From Pseudolactococcus reticulitermitis (GTDB lineage: Bacteria > Bacillota > Bacilli > Lactobacillales > Streptococcaceae): a stretch of 64,000 nucleotides of DNA. The notes beneath the pieces are model-generated. The model was not told the DNA's origin and made no database searches. It saw only the letters and a list, made by a program, of their open reading frames with translations. Numbering within the stretch: position 1 is the stretch's first letter; each line of letters begins with the position of its first letter. The stretch spans positions 496,001 through 560,000 of the forward strand of contig NZ_BEDT01000001.1 in the NCBI RefSeq assembly GCF_002260845.1, written 5' to 3'. Both the position numbers and the translations under genes were made by a program. Of this stretch, positions 1,961 through 19,540 are shown in pieces.

Positions 1961-2403
1961 TTTTCTCTCTTCATTAAAATCGCATCTTCTTGCGGATTTT
2001 GATAGTAATCCTTTCGCTGATAATAGGCTTCAAACTCAAATTTTTCATATAACTTGCGGGCTTTTTCATTTGAGGCACGAACTTCTAGGAAAACTTTGCC
2101 GTCAAGTTCTGCCAGTTGTTCAAGTAATAAACTGGCAATCCCTTGCGACTGATAGGCTTTAGCAACAGCGATATTGGTAATTTCAATCTCATCCATGACG
2201 ACTGACAGCGCTAGAAAACCGAGGACTTTCTGATCTTCTGAAAAAGCCAGATAATAGACCGTCTCTTCACGTAAAAGATCCACAAAAGTCTGCTCAAATG
2301 TCCAAGGAGAAACGTCGTATAACTCATCTAAAATTGCCTGAATCTCTACCGCAAAATCGCGATAACAGTCTGTCAAAAAATTAAGTTGTCTAATGCTAAT
2401 CAT
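1957..2403 (-). CDS. rimI: Ribosomal-protein-alanine-type N-acetyltransferase (RimI-like)
   Basis: A 148-residue GNAT protein. It carries [20 protein letters not shown], then [20 protein letters not shown] (acetyl-CoA loop QSQGIA), [20 protein letters not shown], and a tail ending in [10 protein letters not shown]. This is the RimI pattern. RimI acetylates the N-terminus of ribosomal protein S18 in the classical case; in Firmicutes the target is less certain. It overlaps genes on both sides by 4 bases (ATGA), which points to translational coupling in the tsaB-tsaD operon. Of the two adjacent RimI-like genes this one is the closer match in length. Confidence 0.85.
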
Positions 2404-3645: not shown

Positions 3646-3713
3646 TTCTTGCGGTGTCTTCCTAAGGTTTACAGCCTGACTTATCGTGTTAATCTGGTTG
3701 AGATGTGTGCAGG

Positions 3714-3742
3714 TTGAATATATTACTATTTTATGCTAAAAT
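3714..3742 (+). promoter_or_regulatory. Promoter of rpoY-rnjA
   Basis: TTGAAT at 3714-3719, a 17-base spacer, and TAAAAT at 3737-3742 preceded by TGC (extended -10). The predicted start of transcription is near 3749, giving a leader of about 68 bases before rpoY. Confidence 0.75.
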
Positions 3743-3816
3743 TTAAGTAATTGCAATAATGCGACCTGTATTAAAGGTGCACCTGTAAAAATATACAATT
3801 ATACTGGAGAAAAAAC

Positions 3817-4047
3817 ATGCTTTTCAAAGTCTTTTATCAAGAAACTAAAAAACGTAGCCCTAAACGCGAAACAACACACTCACTCTACTTAGAGCTTGAT
3901 ACAACTGACGTGCGTCAAGGTGTCATTCAAGCCCGCGAAATTATGCGTGACAATACCGATTGCCATGTTGAATTTATCGACGCCATCAGCGATGCACAAG
4001 CCGCATACGAGAAAGAATCTGCAGGCTTTAACATCACAACCTTTTAA
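3817..4047 (+). CDS. rpoY: DNA-directed RNA polymerase epsilon subunit RpoY
   Basis: A 76-residue acidic/basic protein starting MLFKVFYQETKKRSPKRETT, with LYLELDTTDVRQGVIQARE and CHVEFIDAISDAQAAYEKES in the middle. This is the conserved pattern of the small Firmicutes RNA polymerase subunit epsilon (older names YkzG, DUF1447). It binds core RNA polymerase near the secondary channel and resembles phage Gp2 in fold. TGGAG lies 8 bases before the ATG. It sits directly before rnjA, the conserved arrangement in Firmicutes, with a short terminator-like hairpin in between. Confidence 0.93.
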   Translation: MLFKVFYQETKKRSPKRETTHSLYLELDTTDVRQGVIQAREIMRDNTDCHVEFIDAISDAQAAYEKESAGFNITTF

Positions 4048-4057
4048 GCAACCTTAC

Positions 4058-4086
4058 AACTTGTGAGATTCGTCACAAGTTTTTTC
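4058..4086 (+). terminator. Short terminator/attenuator hairpin between rpoY and rnjA
   Basis: ACTTGTGA (4059-4066), a GATTCG loop and TCACAAGT (4073-4080), followed directly by TTTTTT. Because rnjA begins 50 bases downstream with no obvious promoter of its own, it probably terminates only part of the transcripts and sets the rpoY to rnjA ratio. Confidence 0.7.
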
Positions 4087-4135
4087 ATAAACCCAAAAAT
4101 ATATCATACAAAATAAAAAATTAGAAAAGAGAAAG

Positions 4136-5833
4136 ATGACTACTAACAGCTACACCACTCTAAACATCAAACCCGATGAAGTCGCGGTTTTCGCCATTGG
4201 CGGACTCGGCGAAATCGGTAAAAACACTTACGGTGTCGAATACCAAGATGAGATTATCATCGTTGATGCCGGCATCAAATTCCCAGAAGACGATTTGCTC
4301 GGGGTTGACTATGTCATTCCTGATTACAGCTATATCGTTGAAAATCAAGACCGTATCAAGGGTGTTTTTATCACCCATGGTCACGAAGACCATATCGGTG
4401 GCATTCCTTTTCTGCTTAAACAAGCCAATGTGCCGATTTATGCTGGCCCCTTATCCCTTGCCTTAATCCGCGGTAAACTTGAAGAACACGGTCTCTTGCG
4501 TGATGCCAAACTCTTTGAAATTCACCCTGATGATACGATTGCTTTCAAACATTTAAAACTGTCATTCTTCCGCACCACTCACTCAATTCCTGAGCCTATC
4601 GCCATGGTCATTGATACACCGCAGGGTAAAATCGTTGCCACGGGTGACTTTAAGTTTGACTTTACACCCGTTGGCGAACCTGCTGACTTGCACCGTATGG
4701 CTGCGCTTGGCGAGGAAGGCGTGCTCCTGCTCCTTTCTGACTCGACAAATGCTGAGATTCCAACTTTCTCACATTCTGAAAAAGTGGTCGGCGCGTCTAT
4801 TCAAAAAATCTTTGAGCGCATCGAAGGTCGGATTATCTTCGCCTCATTTGCCTCAAATATCTTCCGTTTACAACAAGCCGTTGAGGGTGCCGTTAAGACT
4901 GGTCGTAAAATCGTTGTCTTTGGTCGTTCAATGGAGAAAGCCATTGTCAATGGGATTGAACTTGGTTATATCAAAGCACCAAAAGATACCTTTATCGAAC
5001 CTGGCGAGGTCAATCAATACCAACCCCATGAATTACTAATCATGTGTACTGGCTCACAGGGTGAACCAATGGCTGCGCTCAGTCGTATCGCCAATGGCAT
5101 GCACCGTTTTGTGACCTTGCAAATGGGCGACACCGTTGTCTTCTCGTCTAATGCCATTCCCGGCAATACCCATGGCGTTAATCAGCTGATTAACCGTATC
5201 GCTGAGGCGGGTGCTAAGGTCATCTATGGTAAGATGAACAATATTCACACGTCCGGTCATGGTGGTCAGCAAGAGCAGAAACTCATGCTCCGCTTGATTA
5301 AGCCGAAATATTTCATGCCCGTCCATGGCGAATATCGGATGCTGAAAATCCATGCTGGGCTTGCCCAAGATACGGGTGTGCCGAAAGACAACTGTTTCAT
5401 TTTTGAAAATGGTGATGTTCTGGCACTGACCGCTGATTCTGCACGTCCTGCAGGTCACTTCAATGCCCAAGATACCTACGTCGATGGCAATGGGATCGGC
5501 GATATCGGCAATGCTGTCCTTCGCGATCGTCATGAATTGTCAGAAGATGGTGTCGTCCTTGCCGTTGCGACGGTTGACTTCAAGAGCAAGATGATTTTAG
5601 CGGGGCCTGATATGCTCAGCCGTGGCTTCATCTATATGCGTGAGTCTGGCGATTTGATTCGCTCAGGCCAACGTGTCTTGTTCAATGCCATTCGTAAAGC
5701 CATGACTGATGAAAATGCCAATGAGGCTAGTGTGGCACGCGCGATGACTGAAGCGATTAAGCCTTTCTTCTATCGTGAGTTAGAACGTGAACCGATTATT
5801 ATTCCGATGGTCTTGACACCTGATAAGAAATAA
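4136..5833 (+). CDS. rnjA: Ribonuclease J1
   Basis: A 565-residue metallo-beta-lactamase/beta-CASP ribonuclease with 5' exonuclease and endonuclease activity, central to mRNA decay and rRNA maturation in Firmicutes. It carries the zinc motif HGHEDHIGG at residues 81-89, RTTHSIPE near 148, [10 protein letters not shown] near 168, the beta-CASP block ([32 protein letters not shown] near 375, MPVHGE near 393) and a C-terminal domain. The length is typical of RNase J1. The ribosome site (GAAAAGAGAAAG) is purine-rich but weak. It is followed by a strong terminator. Confidence 0.97.
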
Positions 5834-5841
5834 GTGATAAC

Positions 5842-5881
5842 AAAAGCCCTACAAACGTCTGATAGGTTTGTAGGGCTTTTT
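5842..5881 (+). terminator. Rho-independent terminator of rnjA (probably bidirectional)
   Basis: AAAAGCCCTACAAAC, a 9-base loop, GTTTGTAGGGCTTTT and then more T. No separate terminator is evident after the convergent ROK kinase gene, so this hairpin may serve both directions. Confidence 0.85.
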
Positions 5882-6010
5882 ATTGGCTTTTGTTGACCTT
5901 GGCAATCCTAACTCATCAAGCCTTTCAGAGCCATCAACTACGATTGGTTTCTCTTACAGAGATTCAATTTTTCACAAGACCAGTTTTATAACTAGCTTTA
6001 CTCAGTGGCT

Positions 6011-6877
6011 TTAAGTTTTATGTCTCAATTCCTTTAATGCCAAAGCAAAATTACCTAACGTTGCAGCACCATTATTGGCAATTGATGTGACTTGTAAATA
6101 GTCTTCCAGTGGTGGCGTCATAACATAACCATTTAATAAGGCTTTGAAGTGCGTTCTGACACGTGTCATCATATGCTCTTGTGCCATCACACCGCCACCA
6201 AAAATAAGCTTGCTTGGTGCTAAAGTTAAAGTTGCTGATATAGCTGCTTGGGCAATATAATAAGCTTGAATGTCCCAAACTTCTGAATCCAGTGCAATAT
6301 CTTCGCCAGAAATACCCGTACGTGCTTTAAGACTGGGGCCTGAGGCGACACCTTCTAAACAATCTCCATGAAAGGGGCAAATTCCTTTAAATGCCAAATC
6401 TTTTGGGTGGCGTTTAACAAATTGATGCCCCATTTCTGCATGGGAGATGCCACCAATGAATTGACCTTGCTGAATCGCCGCCGCACCGATGCCAGTTCCA
6501 ATAGTAAAATAGACCAAATTTTGGATTCCTTGTGCAATCAGCTCGCCATAAGCAGAGGCATTAACGTCTGTTGTAAAGTACATTGGCACAGCCAATTGAG
6601 ATTTCAAAAAGCCCATAACATCCGTATTAGACCAATGAGGTTTAGGGGTTGTCGTCATATAGCCGTAAGTTTTTGACTCACGAATCATATCAATTGGACC
6701 GAATGAGCCAACCCCAATCGCGGCAACGTCATATTGTTTAAAATAATCAATGGCTTGCTGTAAAGTCTCCCCCGGCGTAGTTGTTGGAAAGTTAATTGAG
6801 TTTTGCACTTCAAATTTTTCATCGCCTACCGAGCAGACGAATTTTGTACCACCCGCTTCAATACTACCTAGTAACAT
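6011..6877 (-). CDS. ROK-family sugar kinase (fructokinase type)
   Basis: A 288-residue sugar kinase. It has the N-terminal phosphate loop LLGSIEAGGTKFVCSVGDE, an IGVGSFGPIDM segment, the ATP-binding NLVYFTIGTGIGAAAIQQG, and the ROK zinc site HQFVKRHPKDLAFKGICPFH followed by GDCLEG. This zinc-site form is typical of ScrK/GmuE-type fructokinases, which phosphorylate fructose and sometimes mannose. It is the last gene of the PTS operon, after the GH1 gene. Its likely role is to phosphorylate the free hexose released from an imported disaccharide phosphate; that is inference from context. AGGAGG lies upstream of the ATG. Confidence 0.85.
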   Translation of the reverse strand: MLLGSIEAGGTKFVCSVGDEKFEVQNSINFPTTTPGETLQQAIDYFKQYDVAAIGVGSFGPIDMIRESKTYGYMTTTPKPHWSNTDVMGFLKSQLAVPMYFTTDVNASAYGELIAQGIQNLVYFTIGTGIGAAAIQQGQFIGGISHAEMGHQFVKRHPKDLAFKGICPFHGDCLEGVASGPSLKARTGISGEDIALDSEVWDIQAYYIAQAAISATLTLAPSKLIFGGGVMAQEHMMTRVRTHFKALLNGYVMTPPLEDYLQVTSIANNGAATLGNFALALKELRHKT

Positions 6878-6931
6878 TTTTCACTTTTCCTCCTAGTTAT
6901 CACAGCCTATTACTTAAAAATGATCAATACG

Positions 6932-8353
6932 CTACTTCTCCATCTCAGAATCTGAAATCTCAAGACTTGATGTCTTCGAAAGTTCTCTAAAAAAATAGGC
7001 TGACTTTTTCAAAGCCTTTTCTTGCGTATGGTAATTAACAGAAATTAAACCATAACGATTTCGATAGGAATTACGCCAGCTAAAGCAATCAATAGGGGCC
7101 CAAAGGTGGTAGCCAAAACAATTTGCGCCTGTTTCTATCGCCTGATACAGATAGTAAAGATGTTCTTTAATAAAGGTTATCCGATAGGCATCGTGAATCA
7201 TCCCATCCTCAGCTAAATAGCGTTCTTCTTGACTGACCCCCATGCCATTTTCTGACACAAACCAGGCGATATTACCATAATTTTCTTGAATATTTTGAGC
7301 AATATCGAAAAGTGCTTTAGGATATATTTCCCAACCTTTATCAACGTTCATTCGAACACCACGTTTGTCATAGGCTTCAAAATATTTATTGGGTAACCAA
7401 TCAACAGCAAGCGAATCTGATGAATATCTGGGTGCCTGCGCCCTATTGGGATGATAAAAATTGATGCCTAAATAGTCCACTGTGTTTTGCCGAATGATTT
7501 CTAGTTCCTCTTTCGAACTGGTCCAGATAACCTCATCCCTTGTTAAAATATCGACTAGCTCTCTTGGAAATTCGCCATTGACCGAAGCATCCATAAATAA
7601 CCGATTTTGCCATAAATCTGCAAAATGGGCTGCAGCTTGGTCACTTTCAGAAGTCGTCGCAGGATAGTTAGGGGTGAGATTAAGGACAATACCGATTTTC
7701 CCGTCAGGATGCTGATTAACCTGACGAAATGCTGCAATAGCTTTTGAAGAGGCAAGCTGCAAATTATAGGCAACTTGTACAGCTTTTCGGCCATCGACAA
7801 TATCTGGATAATGAAATTGATAGAGGTAACCACCTTCAACCACCACCATCGGTTCATTATGTGTCACCCAATCCGATACCCGATCAGAAAACAGGTCAAA
7901 ACATTTTTCTGCAAATGCCACATATAGCTCAACAACCTGTTTAGACTCCCAACCTCCATAACGATGCAGAAGTGCGACTGGTAAATCAAAGTGGTGCAAA
8001 TTAATAACAGGTCTAATCCCATTTTTGATAAATTCATCAATGACGGCATTATAAAAACTGACCGCTTCTGAATTGACCGTCCCTGTTTCTAAATCATCAA
8101 TGAGTCGTGTCCATTGGATTGATGTTCTGACGGAATTTAAGCCTGCTGCTTTCATCAGGGCAATATCTTGTTTGAAATCATGATAGAAATTTGATGCTGT
8201 ATCTGGACCAATACCGTGCCAAAAATGCTCTGGAAATTTCTCAAAATCATAATCAAAGATATTGGCATGTGACTTCTGAAATCGACCTTCTGTTTGTGGG
8301 CCAGATGTCGCAGCACCCCACCAAAAGTTTTTTGGAAATTCAAGTCTTGTCAT
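6932..8353 (-). CDS. 6-phospho-beta-glucosidase, glycoside hydrolase family 1
   Basis: A 473-residue GH1 enzyme. It has the N-terminal signature FPKNFWWGAATSGPQTEG, the acid/base Glu167 in THNEP and the nucleophile Glu368 in SENGMG. Near the C-terminus ALKKSAYFFREL matches the phosphate-binding loop seen in 6-phospho enzymes. It hydrolyses PTS-imported 6-phospho-beta-glucosides in the cytoplasm. It lies between the EIIC and ROK kinase genes on the same strand, with about 43 and 54 bases between them, so the three form one catabolic operon. Cellobiose or an aryl-glucoside is the likely substrate class; which one cannot be read from the sequence. Confidence 0.93.
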   Translation of the reverse strand: MTRLEFPKNFWWGAATSGPQTEGRFQKSHANIFDYDFEKFPEHFWHGIGPDTASNFYHDFKQDIALMKAAGLNSVRTSIQWTRLIDDLETGTVNSEAVSFYNAVIDEFIKNGIRPVINLHHFDLPVALLHRYGGWESKQVVELYVAFAEKCFDLFSDRVSDWVTHNEPMVVVEGGYLYQFHYPDIVDGRKAVQVAYNLQLASSKAIAAFRQVNQHPDGKIGIVLNLTPNYPATTSESDQAAAHFADLWQNRLFMDASVNGEFPRELVDILTRDEVIWTSSKEELEIIRQNTVDYLGINFYHPNRAQAPRYSSDSLAVDWLPNKYFEAYDKRGVRMNVDKGWEIYPKALFDIAQNIQENYGNIAWFVSENGMGVSQEERYLAEDGMIHDAYRITFIKEHLYYLYQAIETGANCFGYHLWAPIDCFSWRNSYRNRYGLISVNYHTQEKALKKSAYFFRELSKTSSLEISDSEMEK

Positions 8354-8396
8354 ACATCTTCTTTCTATTTTGTTTGATATGAGGCGATTGATAACG

Positions 8397-9680
8397 TTAG
8401 TCTTCCTTTATTTTATCTACCATCATCAAGAACGGTAGATAGATTAAACCAACGACAATCATCTGCACAATTTGAAGTAGACTTCCCATGATTGAATTGG
8501 TCGCAAGAAATCCTGAAATAACTGCTGGCATTGTCCAAGGGACTTGTGCCCCAGTTGTCAGTGGGACAATACCTGAGGCAAAGCCGGCATAAGCAATGAT
8601 GACTGATACAATCGGCGCAAGCAACCATGGAATGAATAGTGAGGCATTCATAACCATTGGTAGCCCGAAAATAACTGGCTCATTGACATTAAATATTCCT
8701 GGTGCAATGGCTAAGCGTGCCACTTCTTTATACTGTTTCTTGGTCATAATGATCATAATCAAAATCAAGACAATCAAGGTTGAGCCTGAACCGCCTAATG
8801 ATACTGTGAAAGTATCCATAAATGATTTTGTGACAATGTGACCGTGTTCTTGAAGGGTCGCATTTCCTTTTTTAAGTAATTCAGCATTATCAAGACCATT
8901 TGTTTGCCAAAATGGCTCAAAAACAGAGTTGACAATAACCTGACCATGGAGACCAAAAAACCAAAGAAATTGAACAAAGAAGATGGCAATAACTGTCCCG
9001 ACTAATGATGTCCCAAGACCTGTCAGTGGTTTTTGGATGATATTGTAAATCACATCATGCAAATTTGTATCAAAAACACCAATCATCACGGCATTCCCAA
9101 TTAAAAATGGTAAAAGTGTTCCCAAAACTGGAATCAGGGCTGAAAAAGATTTAGCAACGGCAGGCGGTACACCATCAGGCATGGTAATCACAAGACCTTT
9201 TTGGGTCAAGTAAACATAAACTTTTGCCGCTAAAAAGGCTGCAATCATACCCAGAAACATCCCTTTAGCGCCAAGTCTATCTAGTGATAATAAACCAGTC
9301 GCTTGAATTTCTTTTTTCCCATCCATAACCGTCATGAAAAAGGGTGTTAAAATCAGAAATGATGCGAGTGAAACGACTGCGCCAAAAATGGCTTCAACTT
9401 CTTTAGCTTTTGAAAAATAATAGCCTATCCCTAATGTGACAAATACGGTCATAATTGACATCGTCGCATTTTGACCATTACCAAACAAATTTGAAAACTG
9501 TGTTTTAACTGAATCCGACCAAAATGGTAAATTGTTAAAGACGACGATAAAGGAGCCAAACATTGTGAGTGGAAAACTGAGCATAAAAGCATCTCGGAGT
9601 ACCGTCAAATACAGGTTAGCACCGATTTTTTGAGCAATTGGTGCTATTTTGGCACCGAGTGCATCCATAAAGTGATTCAT
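8397..9680 (-). CDS. PTS sugar transporter EIIC, lactose/cellobiose family
   Basis: A 427-residue membrane permease with about ten hydrophobic segments. Family marks are the N-terminal amphipathic MDALGAKIAPIAQKIGANLY, VLRDAFMLSFPLTMFGSFIV, the cytoplasmic-loop motif IFNVNEPVIFGLPMVMNASL near residue 330, and the final VDKIKED. It imports and phosphorylates beta-glucosides with EIIA and EIIB subunits that are not in this window, so these must come from elsewhere in the genome. GGAGG lies 6 bases before the ATG. It is the first gene of the operon, behind a promoter overlapped by a cre site. Confidence 0.92.
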   Translation of the reverse strand: MNHFMDALGAKIAPIAQKIGANLYLTVLRDAFMLSFPLTMFGSFIVVFNNLPFWSDSVKTQFSNLFGNGQNATMSIMTVFVTLGIGYYFSKAKEVEAIFGAVVSLASFLILTPFFMTVMDGKKEIQATGLLSLDRLGAKGMFLGMIAAFLAAKVYVYLTQKGLVITMPDGVPPAVAKSFSALIPVLGTLLPFLIGNAVMIGVFDTNLHDVIYNIIQKPLTGLGTSLVGTVIAIFFVQFLWFFGLHGQVIVNSVFEPFWQTNGLDNAELLKKGNATLQEHGHIVTKSFMDTFTVSLGGSGSTLIVLILIMIIMTKKQYKEVARLAIAPGIFNVNEPVIFGLPMVMNASLFIPWLLAPIVSVIIAYAGFASGIVPLTTGAQVPWTMPAVISGFLATNSIMGSLLQIVQMIVVGLIYLPFLMMVDKIKED

Positions 9681-9697
9681 AAGAAACCTCCAACATT

Positions 9698-9726
9698 ATT
9701 TTATGTCCTCATGATAACGCTTTCAA
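9698..9726 (-). promoter_or_regulatory. Promoter of the beta-glucoside PTS operon with overlapping cre site
   Basis: Reading the - strand: TTGAAA (9721-9726), a 17-base spacer and TAAAAT (9698-9703). A catabolite-responsive element TGAAAGCGTTATCA at 9712-9725 fits the consensus TGWNANCGNTNWCA at every position and covers the -35 box. CcpA binding there should block transcription when preferred sugars are present. Two copies of AATGTATAG (9753-9761 and 9807-9815) further upstream could be contacts for the neighbouring GntR regulator; this last point is a guess. Confidence 0.8.
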
Positions 9727-9816
9727 ACTCGGATTGCAATAGCATTTTTTATAATGTATAGCTCTTATGGCAGTATTTTACTGTTAAAGATAGGTTTTCC
9801 TACTCCAATGTATAGA

Positions 9817-10542
9817 TTAAATTTTGCGTGTCAAGATAACTTCTAGACTAAATTCTTCACCTATATGTGTGACCCTTGAATATTCAAATATTTGTCCTGT
9901 TAAAAATCGTGCGGTCTGTGTTGTTAAAACAACGGGTTTGCCAATCTCCATTTTCAGCAACTCCGACTCTTGTTCATCCGCTACATGAACCGCAATTCTT
10001 CTATGAGACTCTTCAATAATATAACCTAACTGTTGTTCAATATACTCATAAATGGAATTTTCCACATGCTCTAATTTCAAATTTAGAATCAGATTGACTG
10101 GCATCCACATTTCTTCAAGAACAAAGGGCTTATCATCCTTGCTCCTCACGCGTTTGATATGGTAAACTGGCTCATCTGCTGTCTTAAAATTTAGCTTTTG
10201 CCGAACCAGCTCATCCGCAGAAACAATTTCAAAAACCAACACATTAGAGATGACCTTTTTATCTGCAAACAAAGCTGTTGAGCCTCTAAAATAATTAATT
10301 TCCCGTCTTCTATCTAGCGATGCTTTCGTAAAATCATTGACAAACGCACCTTTTGCCTTGACTTTTGTAATCAGTCCCTCATCCATTAATAAATCTGTCG
10401 CCTTTTTTACCGTCATTTTAGACGCCTGAAAAGTTTCAATCAGTTCCCGTTCATAGGGTAATTTACTTTTAACTGGGAATTCCCCCGACAGTATTTTATT
10501 TCTGAGAATGTTTGCAATCGTCAAGTATTTTTGTATTTTCAT
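9817..10542 (-). CDS. GntR/HutC-family transcriptional regulator (UTRA domain)
   Basis: A 241-residue regulator. The N-terminal winged helix covers residues 1-70 (ILRNKILSGEFPVKSKLPYE, then ELIETFQASKMTVKKATDLL). The C-terminal UTRA ligand domain includes VYHIKRVRSKDDKPFVLEEM and NSIYEYIEQQLGYIIEESHR. It lies directly upstream of the PTS operon on the same strand. It most likely senses a phosphorylated sugar and controls that operon. No Shine-Dalgarno sequence is visible, and a TGCTAAAAT extended -10 box ends 6 bases before the ATG, so the message may be leaderless. Confidence 0.9.
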   Translation of the reverse strand: MKIQKYLTIANILRNKILSGEFPVKSKLPYERELIETFQASKMTVKKATDLLMDEGLITKVKAKGAFVNDFTKASLDRRREINYFRGSTALFADKKVISNVLVFEIVSADELVRQKLNFKTADEPVYHIKRVRSKDDKPFVLEEMWMPVNLILNLKLEHVENSIYEYIEQQLGYIIEESHRRIAVHVADEQESELLKMEIGKPVVLTTQTARFLTGQIFEYSRVTHIGEEFSLEVILTRKI

Positions 10543-10548
10543 GCTTTA

Positions 10549-10557
10549 ATTTTAGCA
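10549..10557 (-). promoter_or_regulatory. Extended -10 box immediately upstream of the GntR gene
   Basis: TGCTAAAAT on the - strand, with TAAAAT at 10549-10554. Only six bases (10543-10548) separate it from the ATG, so transcription would start at or next to the start codon. The -35 region is poor. Confidence 0.45.
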
Positions 10558-10600
10558 TAAATTTCAAATATTTTTTACATACATCTGCCTATAAACTCAA

Positions 10601-11602
10601 TTAAAATTCTTTCGCCAATAGCTCACGCTGCTCCTGCGACATGAAACTTGCCTCAAAGGCATAACGCGTAATCTGGCGAAAGTCTGTTTCACTCAAGTCA
10701 TACCAGTCTGCAATTTTTTCATATTCATCATTCAAAGTTGTATCTGAAACCGTCCGGTTATCGGTGTTAATCGTTACCCTGACACCCGCATCAAACAGTT
10801 TTTTGAAGGGATAGTTGGCCAAGGTATCCACCGCCTTGGTCTGAAAATTAGAGGTTGGTGCCATTTCAATGGTAATCTTGTTTGCAGCCAAATCTGGCCA
10901 GCTTTCAGGGATGTCTTTTAAGGCCACACCATGACCGATTCGACTGGCACCCGCCTTAATAGCCCCTAAAACATTTTGGGCACAGCCACATTCGCCAGCG
11001 TGCAAGGTCAACGGAATCTGTTCAGACCTGACCTTTTCTAAGACTGGGGCGAAATGCTCTGGAAAGCCATCTACCTCTACTCCCGCTAAATCAAAGCCCG
11101 CCAGATGCGTCAAGCCACCGTCTGCAAATAACTCGACGACCGTCAGAATACTGTCGACAGATTCGTGACGCATGCCGCAAAGCAAGGCATTCGCTTTAAC
11201 CTGAAAATCGCGTTCGCCTGCGACTAAGCCACGTGTGACTGCCGCAACGATTTGGGGTAGCGTCAAGCCACCTGCCGTGTGCAAAGTTGGGGCAAAGCGG
11301 ATTTCCATGTAGCGGATATTGTCTTTTTGCGCTTGCTCGAGAATATCATAGGCCGCCAGTTCAAGCGCTGCTTCAGTTTGCAACATGGGCAAGACGAAGT
11401 CAAAGGGCGCTAGATAGGCCAGCAAATTGTCAGCATCTTGAGGGGCTGTGATTTTTTGGCGCAAATCATCATCTGAAACAGGCAACTCAATCCCTGCCTG
11501 TTGCGCTAAACGCCGAATCGTTGGCATGGCAATCGACCCGTCCAGATGACAGTGCAACTCCACTTTAGGCAACTGCTCAATTTCTAATCGTGTTATCCGC
11601 AT
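10601..11602 (-). CDS. add: Adenosine deaminase
   Basis: A 333-residue purine salvage enzyme that deaminates adenosine and deoxyadenosine to inosine and deoxyinosine. The zinc and catalytic motifs are HCHLDGS at residues 17-23, TLHAGECG near 200 (His and the catalytic Glu side), IGHG near 222 and INTDNR near 280 (the metal-binding Asp). I chose the ATG at 11602, preceded by GAGAGGAGT, rather than a GTG at 11626 that lacks a ribosome site and overlaps the upstream gene. It follows the nuclease gene with about a 20-base gap, so DNA-derived nucleosides could feed this enzyme; that link is inference. Confidence 0.93.
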   Translation of the reverse strand: MRITRLEIEQLPKVELHCHLDGSIAMPTIRRLAQQAGIELPVSDDDLRQKITAPQDADNLLAYLAPFDFVLPMLQTEAALELAAYDILEQAQKDNIRYMEIRFAPTLHTAGGLTLPQIVAAVTRGLVAGERDFQVKANALLCGMRHESVDSILTVVELFADGGLTHLAGFDLAGVEVDGFPEHFAPVLEKVRSEQIPLTLHAGECGCAQNVLGAIKAGASRIGHGVALKDIPESWPDLAANKITIEMAPTSNFQTKAVDTLANYPFKKLFDAGVRVTINTDNRTVSDTTLNDEYEKIADWYDLSETDFRQITRYAFEASFMSQEQRELLAKEF

Positions 11603-11622
11603 GCTCGCAGCACTCCTCTCAT

Positions 11623-12441
11623 TCACTTCATTTTTTGACCAACACCTGTCAGATAATCAATCTGATAGCCGGGCTGAACGTTGAAAATATAGACATTGAT
11701 ATCACAGGCTTTGCCATCATCTTCGATTGATTTCGCCATCAGCTGCACGCCACGCGGCAGCAACTCCTTGCCCTGATAAACCGGCGTCACCTGATAGCGC
11801 ACGTGTAATTTCTTATAGTACAAGACATCCGAAATCTGCGTCTCGAAGTCCTGCATGCCTGGCGAATTCATCGCCCGCGTGCCCGTCACCAGATTTTCCT
11901 TGCTCCCCGCATCGCCCGAAAACATCCACGCCACCAAATGACTGCGATTATAAAGCGTGACCTTGCCACCATTAAAATCAATCTGCTGATTATTTGATCG
12001 ACCATTGTAGGCCCAACCCGCAGGATTATTGGGAATTCTCGGTCGAACCATGGTTTTGACTTGCATATAGCGATCATAACTCAGGCGTGCATTGGCTTGA
12101 TTGGCTCTGCCTAGGCTATCAAGGGGCGAAAACTTCAGCCAGTCATCCTGATTGGAATCCTGTGATAATGCCGCAGCTGAAAAGGTTGATTTACCACCAT
12201 TTATCTTGACAAAATAACGATCAGAACCATCCCATTTGAGTTTGAGCAACTCCCCAGCATTGGTCGCCTTAATGATCTTTTCTTGTGAAGATAGGTTATG
12301 ACCACCTGACTGTGCGAAGATAAAGTAGCCTGCAACACCAATGACTAGCACAACTAAAACGATCAGTTGCTGCGTTTTTGTCAGACGATTGAACACTTTC
12401 TCGCCTGATTTGATTAATTTTTTCTGATCAGATTTTTTCAA
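11623..12441 (-). CDS. Membrane-anchored DNA/RNA non-specific endonuclease (EndA-type)
   Basis: A 272-residue protein with a basic start, a single transmembrane segment at about residues 28-44 (LIVLVVLVIGVAGYFIFA), and an outward-facing nuclease domain. The domain carries GGKVTLYNRSHLVAWMF with the catalytic His in a DRGH-like NRSH motif, and ENLVTGTRAMNSPGMQDFET with the Asn that holds the metal. This is the beta-beta-alpha metal finger family of the pneumococcal EndA nuclease, which processes DNA during uptake or degrades extracellular DNA. Which role applies here is unknown. Its start overlaps the SprT-like gene by 4 bases. Confidence 0.88.
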   Translation of the reverse strand: MKKSDQKKLIKSGEKVFNRLTKTQQLIVLVVLVIGVAGYFIFAQSGGHNLSSQEKIIKATNAGELLKLKWDGSDRYFVKINGGKSTFSAAALSQDSNQDDWLKFSPLDSLGRANQANARLSYDRYMQVKTMVRPRIPNNPAGWAYNGRSNNQQIDFNGGKVTLYNRSHLVAWMFSGDAGSKENLVTGTRAMNSPGMQDFETQISDVLYYKKLHVRYQVTPVYQGKELLPRGVQLMAKSIEDDGKACDINVYIFNVQPGYQIDYLTGVGQKMK

Positions 12442-12908
12442 TGCTGACTTCCTTTTCTATCTCGCGTTAAGTCTAATTGTAATTTGCCACGACATTTGCC
12501 ACAGCGATATTTTTTCAGATTAATCCGCCGCCGTCTGAGGTAGCTCTGACCACATCTTACACAGTGATAGCTTAAGCTTTGAACATCTGGCAAGGGTGGC
12601 GCAAAGCGTAAGCCCCCTACTTGTGCGAGCAAGTTTTTAAAATCTTGATTGCCATGTTTATAGCCCCGTCCCTCACGATAAAGATGGTAATGAACCAGTT
12701 CATGCTGGACGATTTGCCGAAAAATATCCTCTGAAAAAGCATCATACATCTTTTCATTGAAGTCCAGATGTAAATCTTTTGGAAAAAATCGGCCACCTGT
12801 TGATTTCAGTCGACCATTAAACTTCACGTCATGCTCAAAAGGTTTGCCAAAATCTGTTAGCGAGACCCATTTCACAAAGGCCAGTAGTTCATCATTTTTG
12901 TTTGTCAT
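12438..12908 (-). CDS. SprT-like zinc metalloprotease-fold protein
   Basis: A 156-residue protein with the SprT domain. It has FGKPFEHDVKFNGRLKSTGG, then the zinc motif HELVH at residues 69-73 with a further His two positions on, and a C-terminal zinc ribbon made of CVRCG and CGKC pairs. The family is related to the SPRTN/Wss1 proteases; the function in Firmicutes is not established. I start it at 12908 because the sequence from MTNKNDELLA matches the usual family N-terminus. The frame is open to 12962 inside tex. The start overlaps the tex stop by 17 bases with no clear ribosome site, which suggests coupled translation. Confidence 0.85.
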   Translation of the reverse strand: MTNKNDELLAFVKWVSLTDFGKPFEHDVKFNGRLKSTGGRFFPKDLHLDFNEKMYDAFSEDIFRQIVQHELVHYHLYREGRGYKHGNQDFKNLLAQVGGLRFAPPLPDVQSLSYHCVRCGQSYLRRRRINLKKYRCGKCRGKLQLDLTRDRKGSQH

Positions 12909-15054
12909 TTGTTTCAGGTAAGTCTTTTGGTTCAACCATTGACAAGCCAACTTTGCTGCCACGGCTTTGGTCGATTTGGTAGACCCAAACGGTTACGATT
13001 TGCCCAACAGCGACGACACTTGACGGATCTTTGACGAATTTTTTAGCCATGCGAGAGACATGGACCAAGCCGTCTTCTTTAATGCCAATGTCAACAAAGG
13101 CACCAAAATCAACGACATTACGGACAACACCCTCTAGTTTTTGGCCGACACGCAAATCTTTGACAGATAAAACATCCGAGCGCAAGATTGGGGCATCAAA
13201 ATCATCCCGCAAATCACGACCGGGTTTCAGCAGGTCTGAAATGATGTCTTTCAGTGTGGCTTTACCAACTGCCAGTTTATCCGCGAGTTGATTCAGGTTT
13301 GCTTTTTCCAGTTTGGCACGCGCTGCATCGTCCAACTCCTGAATGCCAAATTCTGCGAATAATTGGTCAACAACCTTGTAAGACTCTGGGTGAACGCCTG
13401 TGTTGTCAAGGATATTAGCACTGTTTGGAATCCGCAAGAAACCAGCAGCCTGTTCGAAAGCCTTAGCCCCCAAACGTGGCACTTTATTGATTTCCTTGCG
13501 TGACTTGATGACGCCATTTTCTTCTCGGTAGGCCACGATATTTTTGGCAATGGTGGCATTCAAACCTGCAACGTGTGACAGCAAGCTAGCGCTTGCCGTA
13601 TTGACATTGACACCGACTTGGTTGACCACTGTCTCAACGACGAAATCTAGATTTTCTGTCAATTTTTTCTCAGACACATCGTGTTGATATTGTCCGACAC
13701 CGATCGCTTTTGGCTCGATTTTCACTAATTCAGCTAGTGGATCTTGCAGACGACGGGCAATAGAAATGGCTGAACGTTTTTCGACGGTCAAATCAGGAAA
13801 TTCTTCTCGCGCCAAGGGACTGGCTGAATAGACAGACGCCCCACTTTCCGACACGATGACGTATTTGGCAGATAAGTGATTGTCTTTGATAACGTCTGCG
13901 ACAAACTGCTCACTTTCTCGCGATGCTGTCCCATTGCCAATGGCAATCATTTCCACTTCGTAATCTGTAATCAGCTTCGTCAGCTCCACTTTTGCCAGCT
14001 CAATCTGCTTAGCAGAGGCTGGTTTGACAGGATAAATCACCGTCGTCATCAGCATTTTACCAGTTTTATCGACGATGGCGATTTTAGCGCCCGTTCTAAA
14101 GGCAGGGTCAAACCCAAGGACAACCTTGCCTTTCAAGGGTGCGACAAGCAAGAGATTACGCAGATTTTTACCGAAAGTTTCAATCGCGCCGTCTTCCGCA
14201 CGCTCTTTCAGCTCAGCCCGAACATTGCGCTCCATGGCAGGAATAATCTTCGATTTAAGCGCCTCATTAATAGCCGTTTTCAGGTAAGCGTTGGTCTTAG
14301 CATTGTAGCGACTCTCAAACATGAGCGTCATCTTGTCGACATTATGCTCAAACTTGACCGTCAAAATGCCGAGTTTTTCGCCCCGATTAACCGCCAAAAC
14401 CCGATAATTCGGAATTTCAGACACTTTATCCGAAAAATCATAGTAAATCTGAAAGACATTCTTCTCATCCAGACTGCTATCTTTTTCAGACGTCGTCAGG
14501 CGTGAGTTTTGCTTGATTTCATTGAGCACCCAAGCCCGCATCTTCACATCTTCAGAAATGGCCTCAGATAAGATATCAAGCGCACCTGAAATCGCATCGT
14601 CAGTTGATAGCACCTCCTCGTTTAGATAGCCCTCAGCACTCCTTGCAACATCACCATTTTGCATGATGACCTTGGCCAAGCCAAACAAGCCACGCTCCTT
14701 AGCAATCATCGCTTTGGTTCGGCGTTTGGTTTTGTAAGGCAGGTAAAATTCTTCAACTTCTGACAGTTTTTCAGCCGCTAGGATATTTTTCTTGAGATCA
14801 TCTGACAGCTTGCCCAGTTCTTCAATTTTCGTAAGAACTGCTGTTTTACGCTCATCTAGTTTGATAGCACGGTCATTTTCGTCCACAATCGCCTTGATTT
14901 GAACCTCATCCAAATCCCCCGTTGCTTCTTTCCGGTAACGTGCGATAAAGGGAATCGTATTGCCCTCACTCGTCAGGTCTAGAACTTGCTGGATTTGCTT
15001 AGGTGAAATTGATAGTAAAGCTGAGATTTTCTCGATTTGTTCATTAGTTTTCAT
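12892..15054 (-). CDS. tex: RNA-binding transcriptional accessory protein Tex
   Basis: A 720-residue Tex protein. It has the N-terminal helical region with NTIPFIARYRKEATGDLDEV at residues 33-52, a YqgF-type RNase H-like domain (VVLGFDPAFRTGAKIAIVD near 310), a helix-hairpin-helix segment (VNVNTASASLLSHVAGLN near 480) and a C-terminal S1 domain (LRVGQKLEGVVRNVVDFGAF near 630). Tex binds nucleic acid and influences transcription; Pseudomonas and pneumococcal homologues are known. A TGGTATAAT extended -10 box ends only 6 bases before the ATG and there is no Shine-Dalgarno sequence, so this may be a leaderless message. Confidence 0.95.
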   Translation of the reverse strand: MKTNEQIEKISALLSISPKQIQQVLDLTSEGNTIPFIARYRKEATGDLDEVQIKAIVDENDRAIKLDERKTAVLTKIEELGKLSDDLKKNILAAEKLSEVEEFYLPYKTKRRTKAMIAKERGLFGLAKVIMQNGDVARSAEGYLNEEVLSTDDAISGALDILSEAISEDVKMRAWVLNEIKQNSRLTTSEKDSSLDEKNVFQIYYDFSDKVSEIPNYRVLAVNRGEKLGILTVKFEHNVDKMTLMFESRYNAKTNAYLKTAINEALKSKIIPAMERNVRAELKERAEDGAIETFGKNLRNLLLVAPLKGKVVLGFDPAFRTGAKIAIVDKTGKMLMTTVIYPVKPASAKQIELAKVELTKLITDYEVEMIAIGNGTASRESEQFVADVIKDNHLSAKYVIVSESGASVYSASPLAREEFPDLTVEKRSAISIARRLQDPLAELVKIEPKAIGVGQYQHDVSEKKLTENLDFVVETVVNQVGVNVNTASASLLSHVAGLNATIAKNIVAYREENGVIKSRKEINKVPRLGAKAFEQAAGFLRIPNSANILDNTGVHPESYKVVDQLFAEFGIQELDDAARAKLEKANLNQLADKLAVGKATLKDIISDLLKPGRDLRDDFDAPILRSDVLSVKDLRVGQKLEGVVRNVVDFGAFVDIGIKEDGLVHVSRMAKKFVKDPSSVVAVGQIVTVWVYQIDQSRGSKVGLSMVEPKDLPETNDKQK

Positions 15055-15060
15055 TGGTTT

Positions 15061-15069
15061 ATTATACCA
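15061..15069 (-). promoter_or_regulatory. Extended -10 box immediately upstream of tex
   Basis: TGGTATAAT on the - strand, with TATAAT at 15061-15066. Six bases (AAACCA) separate it from the tex ATG, which places the expected transcription start at the A of ATG. Confidence 0.55.
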
Positions 15070-15326
15070 AAAAAAGACGTTTTTTGCCTTTTATCTGCTG
15101 CTATAAGTGTCAATGAATTATGATATGATTCTATATCAAGCTTAAAATATATTAACACATCAATAATTTATTGATTATAATACTTCTCTCCTCAGCACCT
15201 ACAAAAGGGTATTTTTTATGCACTGATTTTTTCAATAACTTTAGCATCCTAACATCATTTTATGTAAAATGCTGATTTTGAAAAGCAATTAAGATGAATT
15301 AACTATCATAGTATACACCAAATGTT
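15070..15326. other. AT-rich non-coding stretch between tex and the trlF ATPase gene
   Basis: No gene is supported here. Two short inverted repeats are visible, ATCAATAATTTATTGAT near 15161 and CATTTTATGTAAAATG near 15254. Neither has a convincing T-run, so I do not call a terminator for the ATPase gene. Base composition is already the low-GC type of the island that follows. Confidence 0.6.
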
Positions 15327-17306
15327 TTAATATATATGGTATTTACTATCTCTTATTCTAAATGCAGAAGGTGTTCCCTCTAAAATATCCTGAATTTTTT
15401 TGTTAATTTCTTTACTCTCAATCCCTCCTGAAATATAGCTGAATCTATTTTTATTTTCTTTATCTATACTAACGTTTATTACCAACTCTGCATCAGAAAC
15501 TACTGCTAAATTTGGATTATGTGTTACCATAATTATCTGTCTTCTTTTCTTAGCCCTTTTGATATATGGTACAAGAATATTAGCAACACTTTGATTATCT
15601 AAATTATCTTCTGGCTGGTCTATTAGCAATGGAGAAATATCCTTATCTAATAGTAAATAGAATATTAGCAACACTGCTCCCCTTTCTCCAGGAGATAGCT
15701 GTTCTAATTTCTTTTCCCCCAATCTTAAATCAAACTCGTTGTTCACGTATTCTAGACCAAATATATAATCATAGAGTACTTGCCTATCATTGACAAGTGT
15801 CGACAAATCTGTTTTTTGTTTCCCTTTTCCTTTATCTACAAATTTCAAACTCTCAACTAATTTATCTAGTAAAACATCTATCTGTGAAAAATTTGAATCT
15901 TCGCTCAAATAGTTATCAATTAATTGTTTAAGATATTCTTGTCCATCAACTGCACCTTTGTAACAACTTACTACTCTTTGATTAATTTCAAATAAAAATT
16001 TTTTCGAAAAATCTAAATTAAAAAAGAAATCATTTATTACCTTTATGCTATTTTCCCTATTTTCATTCAAAGTATCTTGCAGTGAATTTGTAGTTACCTT
16101 AATTTTATTTAAAATCGTCAACTTTTCACTCATTATTTTTATAGAAAGGGTTTTACGTTTATTTTCTAAAACAGCTAAATCACGATCCAATTCTTTTTCT
16201 ATATAATCAATTTCTCTAGTCAAATAATTTATAGTATCTTCATTTGGCTCTTCAACTGTTCCAGTTAACTGTTCTTTCTTAAGTTCCCACTTATTATATT
16301 CATTTTCTAATCTTTTGGACTCTCTGACAGCTTTACTTTCTTTAGATAGAATCTTAGAAATTTTTTCCTGACAATATGAAATTTTTCCTTTAAGAGAATT
16401 CCCTCTATATTCTGTTCCTTGAGATTCTTTATCTAGATACTGATTATATCTATTAATTTTTATTTCAAACCCCTTCTCTTTGTCAATTAACATATTTTCA
16501 TTGAAATTATACAAAAACAATTTTTGAGGGTTGATATCAACATCTTCAAGAAAGTCCATATTTAAAGAAATATATTTTTTTAGTTCGTTAATTTTTTCTG
16601 TAAGTTCAAAATTAAATTCATTAATTTTCTGTCTTTTTATTGCAATCTTTGTTAATTCCTCTAAAATGTCTTTTTTAAAATCCTCTAAACGTTTCAATCT
16701 ATATTCAAATTTTTCTAACTCTGATTCAACAACTTGACTATCTTTTTGAACCTCTGCTTTTATAGGTTTCTTCTTTAAATGCTCTTGTAAGCTTTTCTTC
16801 TTCTCTTCTAAATCTGCTTTTAACTTGTCAACCCTCCTACTATCCGAACGGTTTTCAAGACTAATTATTTTTGAATTTAAAATAGATATTTCCTTTTGTA
16901 TTCCTTCAATCTTACTTTTTTCAATAACACTTAATGATTTTCTATACTCTTTAAATGATTTATGCCCCATTTTTTCAACATCTGACAGATATTGAAATAT
17001 TACATTTTCTATCTCTAATCGAAATTTTTCTACTTTTTCAACTTCATTTGTTATATTTTCAAAGTATGACTGTGGTAAATATTTAACTGATTCCGTTTTT
17101 TCTTGTACAGAATCCGCCAAACTTTTTTGGGAAGTTTCAACATTGTCTCTATAAATCAATTTAGCAAATGTTTTCCTAGCAAAAGAGGTATTCTTAAATT
17201 TATTCAAAAACACAAAATCACTAGTTTTATCTGAATTACCACACAAACCAATTATATCAGCTAAAGCCGTTTTCCCTGCTCCTTTATTACCAATAATGAC
17301 ATTCAA
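15327..17306 (-). CDS. TrlF-type ABC/SMC-like ATPase portion (C-terminal part of a split gene)
   Basis: A 659-residue ATPase domain opened at a TTG. Walker A is GNKGAGKTA at residues 6-14. Long charged coiled-coil stretches run from about 90 to 500. LSPGERGAVLLIFYLLLDKD resembles the ABC signature, LLIDQPEDNLDN is Walker B, and MVTHNPNLAVVSDAEL is the H-loop. The same reading frame stays open upstream through IIKNIELFKLKNSSDNEWFS and DEIIELNPQ, joining the end of the PHP gene. The TTG is therefore probably not a true start. This is the ATPase half of a TrlF-like protein (PHP plus AAA) of about 998 residues. Function is unproven; defence is a reasonable guess. Confidence 0.75.
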   Translation of the reverse strand: MNVIIGNKGAGKTALADIIGLCGNSDKTSDFVFLNKFKNTSFARKTFAKLIYRDNVETSQKSLADSVQEKTESVKYLPQSYFENITNEVEKVEKFRLEIENVIFQYLSDVEKMGHKSFKEYRKSLSVIEKSKIEGIQKEISILNSKIISLENRSDSRRVDKLKADLEEKKKSLQEHLKKKPIKAEVQKDSQVVESELEKFEYRLKRLEDFKKDILEELTKIAIKRQKINEFNFELTEKINELKKYISLNMDFLEDVDINPQKLFLYNFNENMLIDKEKGFEIKINRYNQYLDKESQGTEYRGNSLKGKISYCQEKISKILSKESKAVRESKRLENEYNKWELKKEQLTGTVEEPNEDTINYLTREIDYIEKELDRDLAVLENKRKTLSIKIMSEKLTILNKIKVTTNSLQDTLNENRENSIKVINDFFFNLDFSKKFLFEINQRVVSCYKGAVDGQEYLKQLIDNYLSEDSNFSQIDVLLDKLVESLKFVDKGKGKQKTDLSTLVNDRQVLYDYIFGLEYVNNEFDLRLGEKKLEQLSPGERGAVLLIFYLLLDKDISPLLIDQPEDNLDNQSVANILVPYIKRAKKRRQIIMVTHNPNLAVVSDAELVINVSIDKENKNRFSYISGGIESKEINKKIQDILEGTPSAFRIRDSKYHIY

Positions 17307-17383
17307 CTGGGGATTTAATTCTATTATCTCATCACTAAACCACTCATTATCACTACTATTCTTTAGTTTGAATAGCTCAATAT

Positions 17384-17400
17384 TTTTTATAATTTTTCTG
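17384..17400 (-). other. Frameshift junction joining the PHP and ATPase halves
   Basis: On the - strand the PHP frame ends AAT CCA GAA AAA TTA TAA. If the run of five A (17393-17397 as T on +) had six, it would read NPEK and continue as IIKNIELFKLKNSS into the Walker A frame without a stop. A -1 slip at AAA gives the same protein. The run is not a standard slippery heptamer. Confidence 0.75.
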
Positions 17401-18322
17401 GATTTTCTATTATTCTATTTAATACAGATGGTCTCTCTCCGATAAAAACTCTATCTTCTGGATCTGTCAAAGTTTGTTTTAATCCATCAAATGTAATTTC
17501 TGATTTGATATAACAATATCTTTTAAGGTCAGGTTCAAATACTTTTTCAAGACAGTGGGCATCAGAACCATGAAAACAAGGCATTACTCCCCCATACTTA
17601 CTTCTCATTTCTTCTGTTGTATCCGCTTTCTTTCCTAAAAAGTAATCAACATCGTTTGGATTTCCAGAAAAAATAGCATCTGCAATTGTATAAATTGCTT
17701 TTCTTGTTCCTTCAAATTGACTATTTTTTAGCCCCGATACACCATCAGTTTCATTATTTGCTACAACCCAAATAGTATTTTGCCGTAAATCATCATCTTT
17801 TAACATATCTTGCAAACAAGATAACTCAATTACAAAATTTTCTACACCTTTTTCTAAAGCTTTATTATCATCTTTTATTTTAGAGTCAATACTTTTTCCA
17901 AGAGCAATTAGCTCTTTTCGTGTAGCAGAGTAGTCTCTTCGTCCATCATTAAATTTAAGTCGCGAAAAAAATCTATCCTCTAATTCATCTACAATATCAG
18001 GATTAAATATACAATGAATATTTATAGGTGTTTTTCCACCTTTTAAATTTAGACGCATTTCAACATTAGGTAAAATCAATTCTATTGACTCAGGAAGTTG
18101 CTTATCCTCTCTAACTTTAATATAATTATCAATTGAAAGATAGTCTGTCACACCAATTGCTTTTATATTTTTCTCGGGAATATTAGTATCTATATATTCA
18201 TTTATACGTTTGTAATACTTATTCCACTGCTCATCACAATTCTTTCCTTCAAACTGAGAATTTTTCTTAGTTTGAGGAGTATGTATATGTAATTCCCATC
18301 TATACCATTCTGAACCGGCCAC
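17387..18322 (-). CDS. PHP-domain phosphoesterase-like portion of a TrlF-type protein (N-terminal part of a split gene)
   Basis: A 311-residue protein. It opens AGSEWYRWELHIHTPQTKKN with the PHP metal motif HIH at residues 12-14, followed by KAIGVTDYLSIDNY, and near the end HGSDAHCLEKVF, another PHP metal-ligand block. It stops right after NPEKL. The start is GTG at 18322 with a perfect AAGGAGG 7 bases upstream. Homologues known as TrlF-family ATPases carry this PHP module fused to the ATPase encoded just downstream. Here one base change separates them. The gene is much more AT-rich than its neighbours outside the island. Confidence 0.75.
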   Translation of the reverse strand: MAGSEWYRWELHIHTPQTKKNSQFEGKNCDEQWNKYYKRINEYIDTNIPEKNIKAIGVTDYLSIDNYIKVREDKQLPESIELILPNVEMRLNLKGGKTPINIHCIFNPDIVDELEDRFFSRLKFNDGRRDYSATRKELIALGKSIDSKIKDDNKALEKGVENFVIELSCLQDMLKDDDLRQNTIWVVANNETDGVSGLKNSQFEGTRKAIYTIADAIFSGNPNDVDYFLGKKADTTEEMRSKYGGVMPCFHGSDAHCLEKVFEPDLKRYCYIKSEITFDGLKQTLTDPEDRVFIGERPSVLNRIIENPEKL

Positions 18323-18550
18323 TTTAAAACCTCCTTGATGAAATCAAAATTTATTTAATTATGTTCTTTGACATATATCTAGTATCTTCAGATTGTTTAA
18401 ATATTGACTATTCAACTACTTTTATAAAAATAGCCTTCAATAATAAAAATCTCATGTTTACTAGTGTATCAACATTTAAACTCATACTCACTGTATTAAA
18501 ATCTCACATATTGTATTATATTTTTTAAGTTTAGTAAAGTTATTGAGATG
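18323..18550. other. AT-rich non-coding stretch upstream of the PHP gene
   Basis: This holds the strong ribosome site of the PHP gene and little else that I can support. It probably contains that gene's promoter and the 3' end of the upstream transcript. No clean -35/-10 pair or terminator stood out. Confidence 0.5.
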
Positions 18551-19234
18551 TTATATAAAAAATTTTGCTATATTAGTTATAATAGAAACAACATTGCTCG
18601 CAACACCAGTGTATTTAGACAATGTTTCAATTATTTTATTTTTATCCTTCTCTGTAGTTTTTCCTTGCGAAAGTTTGTAAATAAAGCTCTCTACATATAT
18701 TTTATCGTTACTTTCAATATTAATATCATTTAAAAAATTTTTTAGTTGGTTTATAACTACTTCTGTATTGTTATCATTTTGATATACATTATTATTTTGA
18801 TTCCCCACCCCATTATGAGTGAAATTATTTATAACTGATTTTCTTATTTCAGCAACTTTGTAATATACTCTAAATTCCATTTTATAAAAAGCTTCTCTTT
18901 CTCCGCTACTAAAAATTTTATTTGTCACAATACTATATGTTGCTGTATCAGTTACAACTAATTTATCATTAATATTTCCTCCCACAGGGAACATTTGGTA
19001 CAGAACATTCAACTTGTTCTTTTGCCAATAATAATAATTTATTCCATAATAAAATTTCCCATAATCGTCTGCTCTTTTCTTCAACTTTTTATATAATTTT
19101 TCTTTGGAATATGTTTTTTTAAAGTCTCTTTTTTCTAACATTTTTTCTATCTTTAGTATAACCAAAATACTCACAACTCCAAATACAATAATTCCCACAA
19201 TAATATACCAATAATACTTCTGAAATTTTTCCAT
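18551..19234 (-). CDS. Unknown membrane-anchored protein of the AT-rich island
   Basis: A 227-residue protein I do not recognise. Residues 7-29 (YYWYIIVGIIVFGVVSILVI) are one transmembrane helix, followed by a very basic stretch (KKTYSKEKLYKKLKKRADDY). The middle carries an Asn/Gln-rich spacer, NNFTHNGVGNQNNNVYQNDN, a kind of linker common in membrane-linked or effector proteins of accessory islands. The C-terminus is helical and ends in a hydrophobic segment (VASNVVSIITNIAKFFI). AAAGGAGAG precedes the ATG, and a TGATATAAT box lies at 19256-19264. It sits upstream of the split trlF gene on the same strand and could be its partner; this is inference only. Confidence 0.7.
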   Translation of the reverse strand: MEKFQKYYWYIIVGIIVFGVVSILVILKIEKMLEKRDFKKTYSKEKLYKKLKKRADDYGKFYYGINYYYWQKNKLNVLYQMFPVGGNINDKLVVTDTATYSIVTNKIFSSGEREAFYKMEFRVYYKVAEIRKSVINNFTHNGVGNQNNNVYQNDNNTEVVINQLKNFLNDINIESNDKIYVESFIYKLSQGKTTEKDKNKIIETLSKYTGVASNVVSIITNIAKFFI

Positions 19235-19255
19235 AAATCACTCTCCTTTTTAATT

Positions 19256-19264
19256 ATTATATCA
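19256..19264 (-). promoter_or_regulatory. Extended -10 promoter of the unknown membrane protein gene
   Basis: TGATATAAT on the - strand, with TATAAT at 19256-19261, about 22 bases before the ATG and just ahead of AAAAAGGAGAG. The -35 region is weak. Confidence 0.5.
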
Positions 19265-19540
19265 AAAAGATACATCTTTATGTGTTATTTACCAGTTTCT
19301 GTTGTCAATACAATATATACAAAATTATTTTCATCATATTTCAAATTCTTGAACAATGGTACTTCTTAAGTACTCCACTACTTCCTATAATAAATCAATT
19401 TATCAGATCAATTTTCCACTTTATATTCAATTTATGAAGACAAATGTAATTTTCATAATCACCAATTTCATTCTTCATTTTCATTTTTTTATTCTTCTTT
19501 CCATCTTAGTGTCAATTTGATTAGTTTTATATTTTAAAAA
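19265..19540. other. AT-rich non-coding stretch between the island and the SUF operon
   Basis: No gene is supported in roughly 275 bases of very low GC. It ends at the sufB terminator. There is no att-like direct repeat or integrase remnant that I can identify. Confidence 0.5.

What the first reader, a model, noticed from the sequence alone, without database searches (positions are those of the whole stretch)
15327..18322. TrlF-type PHP plus ATPase gene split by one base in an A-run
The PHP gene ends NPEKL-stop, and the next frame reads on as IIKNIELFKLKNSS into a Walker A site, with no stop between. Adding one A to the run at 17393-17397, or a -1 slip there, restores a single protein of about 998 residues. 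All metal and ATP motifs in both halves look intact. So either this is a recent mutation, a sequencing error in a homopolymer, or a natural two-protein or frameshifted design. TrlF-like proteins occur in accessory islands and may serve in phage defence.
Basis: partly seen in the sequence, partly recalled or inferred. Interest (0 to 1): 0.66.

Follow-up and report, generated by a model that had tools for sequence, protein, structure and literature searches.

The report
A recently broken TrlF defence-type gene
A bacterial gene of the known TrlF family, which joins a metal-dependent nuclease-like part to an ATP-driven part and probably helps against phages, has lost one base and is now split into two frames, most likely by an ordinary recent mutation.

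Summary
On the minus strand a PHP-domain ORF (17387-18322) stops at TAA; the frame of an SMC/Rad50-like ATPase (open 15330-17414) is one base off. Both halves match one NCBIfam model, TrlF_fam_ATP (positions 2-285 and 311-944 of 944). The closest relative found (L033, 60% and 52% identity) is a single 998-codon ORF that reads straight through the break; 998 is also the read-through length here. Catalytic motifs are intact in both halves and I found no other lesion.

Best explanation: a recent natural one-base deletion disabled TrlF cargo of a low-GC, probably horizontally acquired island between tex and sufB. Sequencing error is disfavoured (no clear frameshift in about 188 kb of conserved coding sequence) but not excluded. 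Programmed frameshifting is unlikely: unconserved site, no stimulator, A-runs too short. A two-protein design is unlikely: 36 of 43 complete TrlF genes sampled are single ORFs, and no start with a ribosome-binding site precedes the ATPase.

One oddity remains: five of six independent lesions in that sample fall within about 80 codons around the PHP/ATPase junction, but they differ in kind and some separate Walker A from the rest. Interest is low.

The parts
17387..18322 (-). PHP-domain half of TrlF, 311 aa, GTG start preceded by AAGGAGG, ends NPEKL-TAA at the break
   Evidence: NCBIfam NF045780 positions 2-285, E 2.4e-63; HxH, E88, D254 and H256 conserved; predicted PHP fold, pLDDT 85.9, best PDB matches PHP phosphoesterases, RNase AM and Pol III alpha PHP
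15327..17306 (-). SMC/Rad50-like ATPase half of TrlF, 659 aa from the first canonical start (TTG, no ribosome-binding site); the frame is open upstream to 17414
   Evidence: NF045780 positions 311-944, 354 bits against a cut-off of 350; 52% identity to L033 over 660 columns, Walker A, LSPGE signature, Walker B IDQPEDNLDN and THNPN present
17387..17397 (-). break point: AAAAATTATAA, the A5 run (17393-17397) followed by TTA and the TAA stop of the PHP frame
   Evidence: the homologue L033 has GAAAAAATAATAAAG in one frame at this place
15093..19536 (.). low-GC (about 23-32%) accessory island between tex and sufB (flanks about 41-52% GC), probably horizontally acquired
   Evidence: composition; alignment with sister genomes ends at 15092 and resumes at 19537 in G010; no strong DNA match to the island in four sister genomes
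18551..19234 (-). 227-aa ORF with a predicted N-terminal hydrophobic stretch, upstream of TrlF in the same island; unknown family, rare
   Evidence: no significant family match; one other genome of 328 in the family has a relative at 37%, and that genome has no listed TrlF

Best explanation
This is a member of the TrlF family, one polypeptide with an N-terminal PHP metal-dependent phosphoesterase (nuclease-like) domain and a C-terminal SMC/Rad50-like ABC ATPase. It was acquired on a small low-GC island between tex and sufB and recently disabled by a natural one-base deletion in a short A-run at the PHP/ATPase linker. In its intact form it most likely works as an ATP-gated nuclease switch: the coiled-coil ATPase senses a nucleic-acid or phage signal and licenses the PHP domain (inferred from the fold and relatives, not shown). 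In this strain translation should give mainly a 311-aa PHP-only product, with little or no ATPase, so the system is probably inactive. Shown: family identity, single-gene ancestry, frame break, intact motifs, island composition. Inferred: that the deletion is real, is recent, and inactivates.
For: Both halves hit consecutive parts of one model. L033, the closest homologue found, is a single 998-aa ORF through the break. 36 of 43 complete TrlF genes sampled in own family, order, class and phylum are single ORFs. There is no other lesion in 998 codons. No clear frameshift was found in about 184 conserved genes (188 kb, 1205 homopolymer runs of 5 or more) of the same assembly. Independent breaks of TrlF exist in relatives, including a one-base deletion in G181 against near-identical intact G168, so natural inactivation recurs. 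The island has 23-32% GC against 41-52% in the flanks.
Against: No reads are available, so a local assembly error cannot be ruled out; the error-rate estimate allows up to about 0.11 (0.17 if the one doubtful case is counted) artefacts in a gene with this many runs. No second strain of the species was available to date the mutation. The product or phenotype of the broken gene is unknown.
Confidence: 0.75

Rival explanations
1. The missing base is a sequencing or assembly error and the gene is intact in the organism.
For: The break lies at a homopolymer, the assembly is a draft of 20 contigs, there is only one lesion, and all motifs are conserved.
Against: The run is only five A. About 188 kb of conserved coding sequence in the same assembly holds 1205 runs of 5 or more and shows no clear frameshift and one doubtful N-terminal case, so 0.04 artefacts are expected in this gene and at most about 0.11-0.17.
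Confidence: 0.15
2. The gene is recoded: ribosomal -1 frameshifting at A_AAA or transcriptional slippage makes some full-length TrlF.
For: A -1 shift at GAA AAA | TTA restores the frame exactly, and A_AAA is a Z_ZZN tetramer. Transcriptional slippage at longer A-runs can rescue interrupted genes in general (PMC4256274, abstract and search listing only).
Against: Z_ZZN tetramers need a strong stimulator in E. coli (PMC4066793). No SD-like sequence lies in the 30 nt upstream, and the downstream structure is weak (z -1.56). In many bacterial genomes selection against slippage-prone runs becomes evident at nine A or T (PMC1088944); here the runs are 5 and 6. The site is not conserved in relatives.
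Confidence: 0.05
3. A natural two-protein version: PHP and ATPase are made separately and work together.
For: Breaks near the same junction recur (G181, G761, and nearby in G105, G1146, L164). PHP-less ATPases related to this half exist (L085, L089, many viral contigs).
Against: The first ATPase start is a TTG 81 nt past the PHP stop without a ribosome-binding site and inside the first ATPase strand. The other breaks are different lesions; in G105 and G1146 they leave Walker A on the PHP fragment, so they cannot be working splits. The PHP-less ATPases inspected sit without a PHP gene, some in another gene cassette.
Confidence: 0.05

Closest known systems
TrlF family AAA-like ATPase (NCBIfam NF045780); named after trlF of the Photorhabdus temperature restriction locus (PMC7554251)
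   Same: Same PHP plus ATPase architecture and order, full profile coverage across the two halves, conserved metal and ATP motifs
   Different: Frame broken by one base at the linker; no trlR/trlG-like neighbours recognised in the island
Ppl anti-phage protein (NF042955; PADLOC Ppl)
   Same: PHP domain followed by an SMC-like ATPase; C-terminal ATPase block and part of PHP align weakly. Ppl presence correlates with phage resistance in S. epidermidis (PMC13152194)
   Different: Scores 83.6 and 35.1 bits against a cut-off of 1000; a different family
SMC/Rad50 and AriA (PARIS) ATPases
   Same: ABC-type ATPase head with long coiled coil; best sequence matches in the PDB
   Different: These do not carry a PHP domain in the same chain; similarity is confined to the ATPase
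PHP nucleases and phosphoesterases (RNase AM, Pol III alpha PHP, 3e0f)
   Same: Predicted fold of the 311-aa half matches these and HxH, E and DxH residues are conserved
   Different: TM-scores are modest (about 0.3-0.5) because of TrlF-specific insertions; activity untested

Membership tests
TrlF (NF045780) | Covers the family profile above the curated cut-off | tested here: met
   ATPase half alone 354 bits against 350, positions 311-944; PHP half positions 2-285, 215 bits
TrlF (NF045780) | One continuous polypeptide | tested here: not met
   TAA and a one-base frame change at 17387-17397; intact in L033 and 35 other sampled genes
TrlF (NF045780) | PHP metal ligands and ABC ATPase motifs | tested here: met
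   H12, H14, E88, D254, H256 invariant; Walker A, signature, Walker B, THNPN
TrlF (NF045780) | Nuclease or anti-phage activity | not testable with these tools
   needs biochemistry or plaque assays
Ppl anti-phage protein (NF042955) | Score above the curated cut-off of 1000 bits | tested here: not met
   83.6 and 35.1 bits
Programmed -1 frameshift gene | Conserved frameshift site in homologues | tested here: not met
   most homologues are in one frame; breaks elsewhere are different lesions
Programmed -1 frameshift gene | Slippery motif with upstream SD or downstream structure | tested here: not met
   A_AAA tetramer only; no SD-like sequence in 30 nt upstream; structure z -1.56
Phase-variable contingency gene | Long hypermutable repeat at the switch point | tested here: not met
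   A5 only
Photorhabdus trlRFG locus | Neighbouring trlG and trlR | tested here: inconclusive
   The island holds only TrlF and one unrecognised 227-aa ORF; no TrlG or TrlR profile was run

The most novel reading that the evidence does not exclude
TrlF genes are broken preferentially around the PHP/ATPase junction because uncoupling the two halves is selected or tolerated, for example to silence a costly ATPase-gated nuclease while keeping PHP, or because a split form still works.
Probability: 0.06. Interest if true: 0.5.

Novelty: new member of a known kind. Interest (0 to 1): 0.2.

Why it matters
It shows that a TrlF gene carried on a probably acquired island has been lost by point deletion, and that broken copies are common: 7 of 43 complete genes in the sample. 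If the excess of breaks near the junction held up in a larger survey, it would point to a fitness cost of the coupled enzyme. As it stands it is an ordinary decayed accessory gene in a family whose function is still poorly known.

Tried and rejected
A search of genome contigs with the ATPase half alone found nothing. Plasmid searches found only distant relatives, and the PHP half had one phage match at 30%. A malformed region request failed. No attachment-site repeat was found around the window island. Literature searches found no paper on TrlF function beyond the Photorhabdus locus. The idea that breaks cluster because of a shared programmed site was rejected, because each lesion inspected is different in sequence.

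Full report
Observation. The PHP ORF starts with GTG after a good ribosome-binding site (AAGGAGG) and ends at TAA 17389-17387. The ATPase frame is open from 17414 to 15330, overlapping the end of the PHP ORF, so one base separates them from a single 998-codon frame.

Identity. Both halves match the NCBIfam model TrlF_fam_ATP at consecutive positions, 2-285 and 311-944 of 944. The related Ppl anti-phage model matches only weakly, far below its cut-off. The closest homologue found, in another family of the same order (L033), is one ORF of 998 aa with 60% identity to the PHP half and 52% to the ATPase half, and it reads NPEKIIKKIKI through the break.

Anatomy. The PHP half keeps the invariant H12, H14, E88, D254 and H256. 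Its predicted structure (pLDDT 85.9) is closest to PHP phosphoesterases, RNase AM and the PHP domain of Pol III alpha, with modest TM-scores. The ATPase half keeps GNKGAGKT, LSPGE, IDQPEDNLDN and THNPN. Its profile matches SMC, Rad50 and AriA in the PDB.

How common are breaks. In searches of own genus, family, order, class and phylum, I counted 43 complete TrlF genes that are not cut by a contig end. 36 are single ORFs and 7 are broken by 6 independent lesions: window, G181, G105, G761, G1146, and one shared by G392 and G602. The count was made by hand from the tables and leaves out Spaf_1101-type relatives and PHP-less ATPases. Five of the six lesions lie within profile positions 261-338 of 889; six uniform lesions do this in 0.14% of simulations, and adding five lesions from a second, score-ranked sample gives 0.8%. 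These are post hoc figures. The lesions differ: a one-base deletion in G181, a short deletion after Walker A in G105, a frame change at a C-run just before Walker A in G761, and one about 40 codons after it in G1146. In G105 and G1146 Walker A stays with the PHP fragment, so these cannot be functional two-protein forms.

Sequencing error. I compared ORFs of relatives, mainly G006, with 400 kb of this genome plus the window. In about 184 conserved places (188 kb) there was one doubtful frameshift at an N-terminus, which on inspection looks like an intact gene with a shorter start. Those genes contain 1205 homopolymer runs of 5 or more, and the TrlF gene contains 44. One error would predict 0.04 artefacts here; the upper bound is about 0.11 for none observed, 0.17 for one. 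An artefact is disfavoured but not excluded.

Recoding. A -1 shift at A_AAA would restore the frame. Such tetramers need a strong stimulator in E. coli (PMC4066793), and none is present. Slippage-prone runs are usually about nine A or T (PMC1088944); these are five and six. Classification schemes for frame transitions ask for a conserved site in at least five genes for a programmed shift (PMC3711429), which is not met.

Context. The gene lies in a 4.4-kb segment of 23-32% GC between tex and sufB with one other ORF of 227 aa, unknown and rare. In sister genome G010 the same interval holds a phage-satellite-like element with an integrase (gene roles read from ORF sequences by eye), and a 19-bp direct repeat of the sufB 3' end marks its ends. 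In G005 tex and sufB are on one contig with other genes between them, and in G001 they are far apart. The window island has no such repeat, so its mode of entry is open.

Mechanism. By fold and by analogy to Ppl and to nuclease-linked SMC-like ATPases, intact TrlF is probably a nuclease switch gated by its ATPase. This is inference. In this strain the expected product is the PHP domain alone, and the system is probably off.

Noticed in passing
L192, L216, L219 (viral contigs); L085, L089: PHP-less relatives of the TrlF ATPase (about 630-650 aa, GGFLDG motif); in the three viral contigs inspected they are followed by a ~370-aa ORF that looks HEAT-like and a response-regulator-like ORF, a possible three-gene cassette (judged by eye)
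   Followed up: partly
L265 (G010), 2204-17221: Phage-satellite-like element between tex and sufB with a 19-bp direct repeat (CCCACAGACCCTTCCATTT) of the sufB 3' end, suggesting an attachment site
   Followed up: partly
L038 and L039 (G392, G602): Two TrlF genes of one genus share a frame break at a run of eight A in the PHP domain; transcriptional slippage there is possible
   Followed up: no
L164 (Desulfosporosinus sp. I2): TrlF frame break at a run of seven A about 45 codons after Walker A
   Followed up: no
window 18551-19234 (-): 227-aa ORF with a hydrophobic N-terminus upstream of TrlF, no family match, one relative at 37% in 328 genomes of the family (L375)
   Followed up: partly
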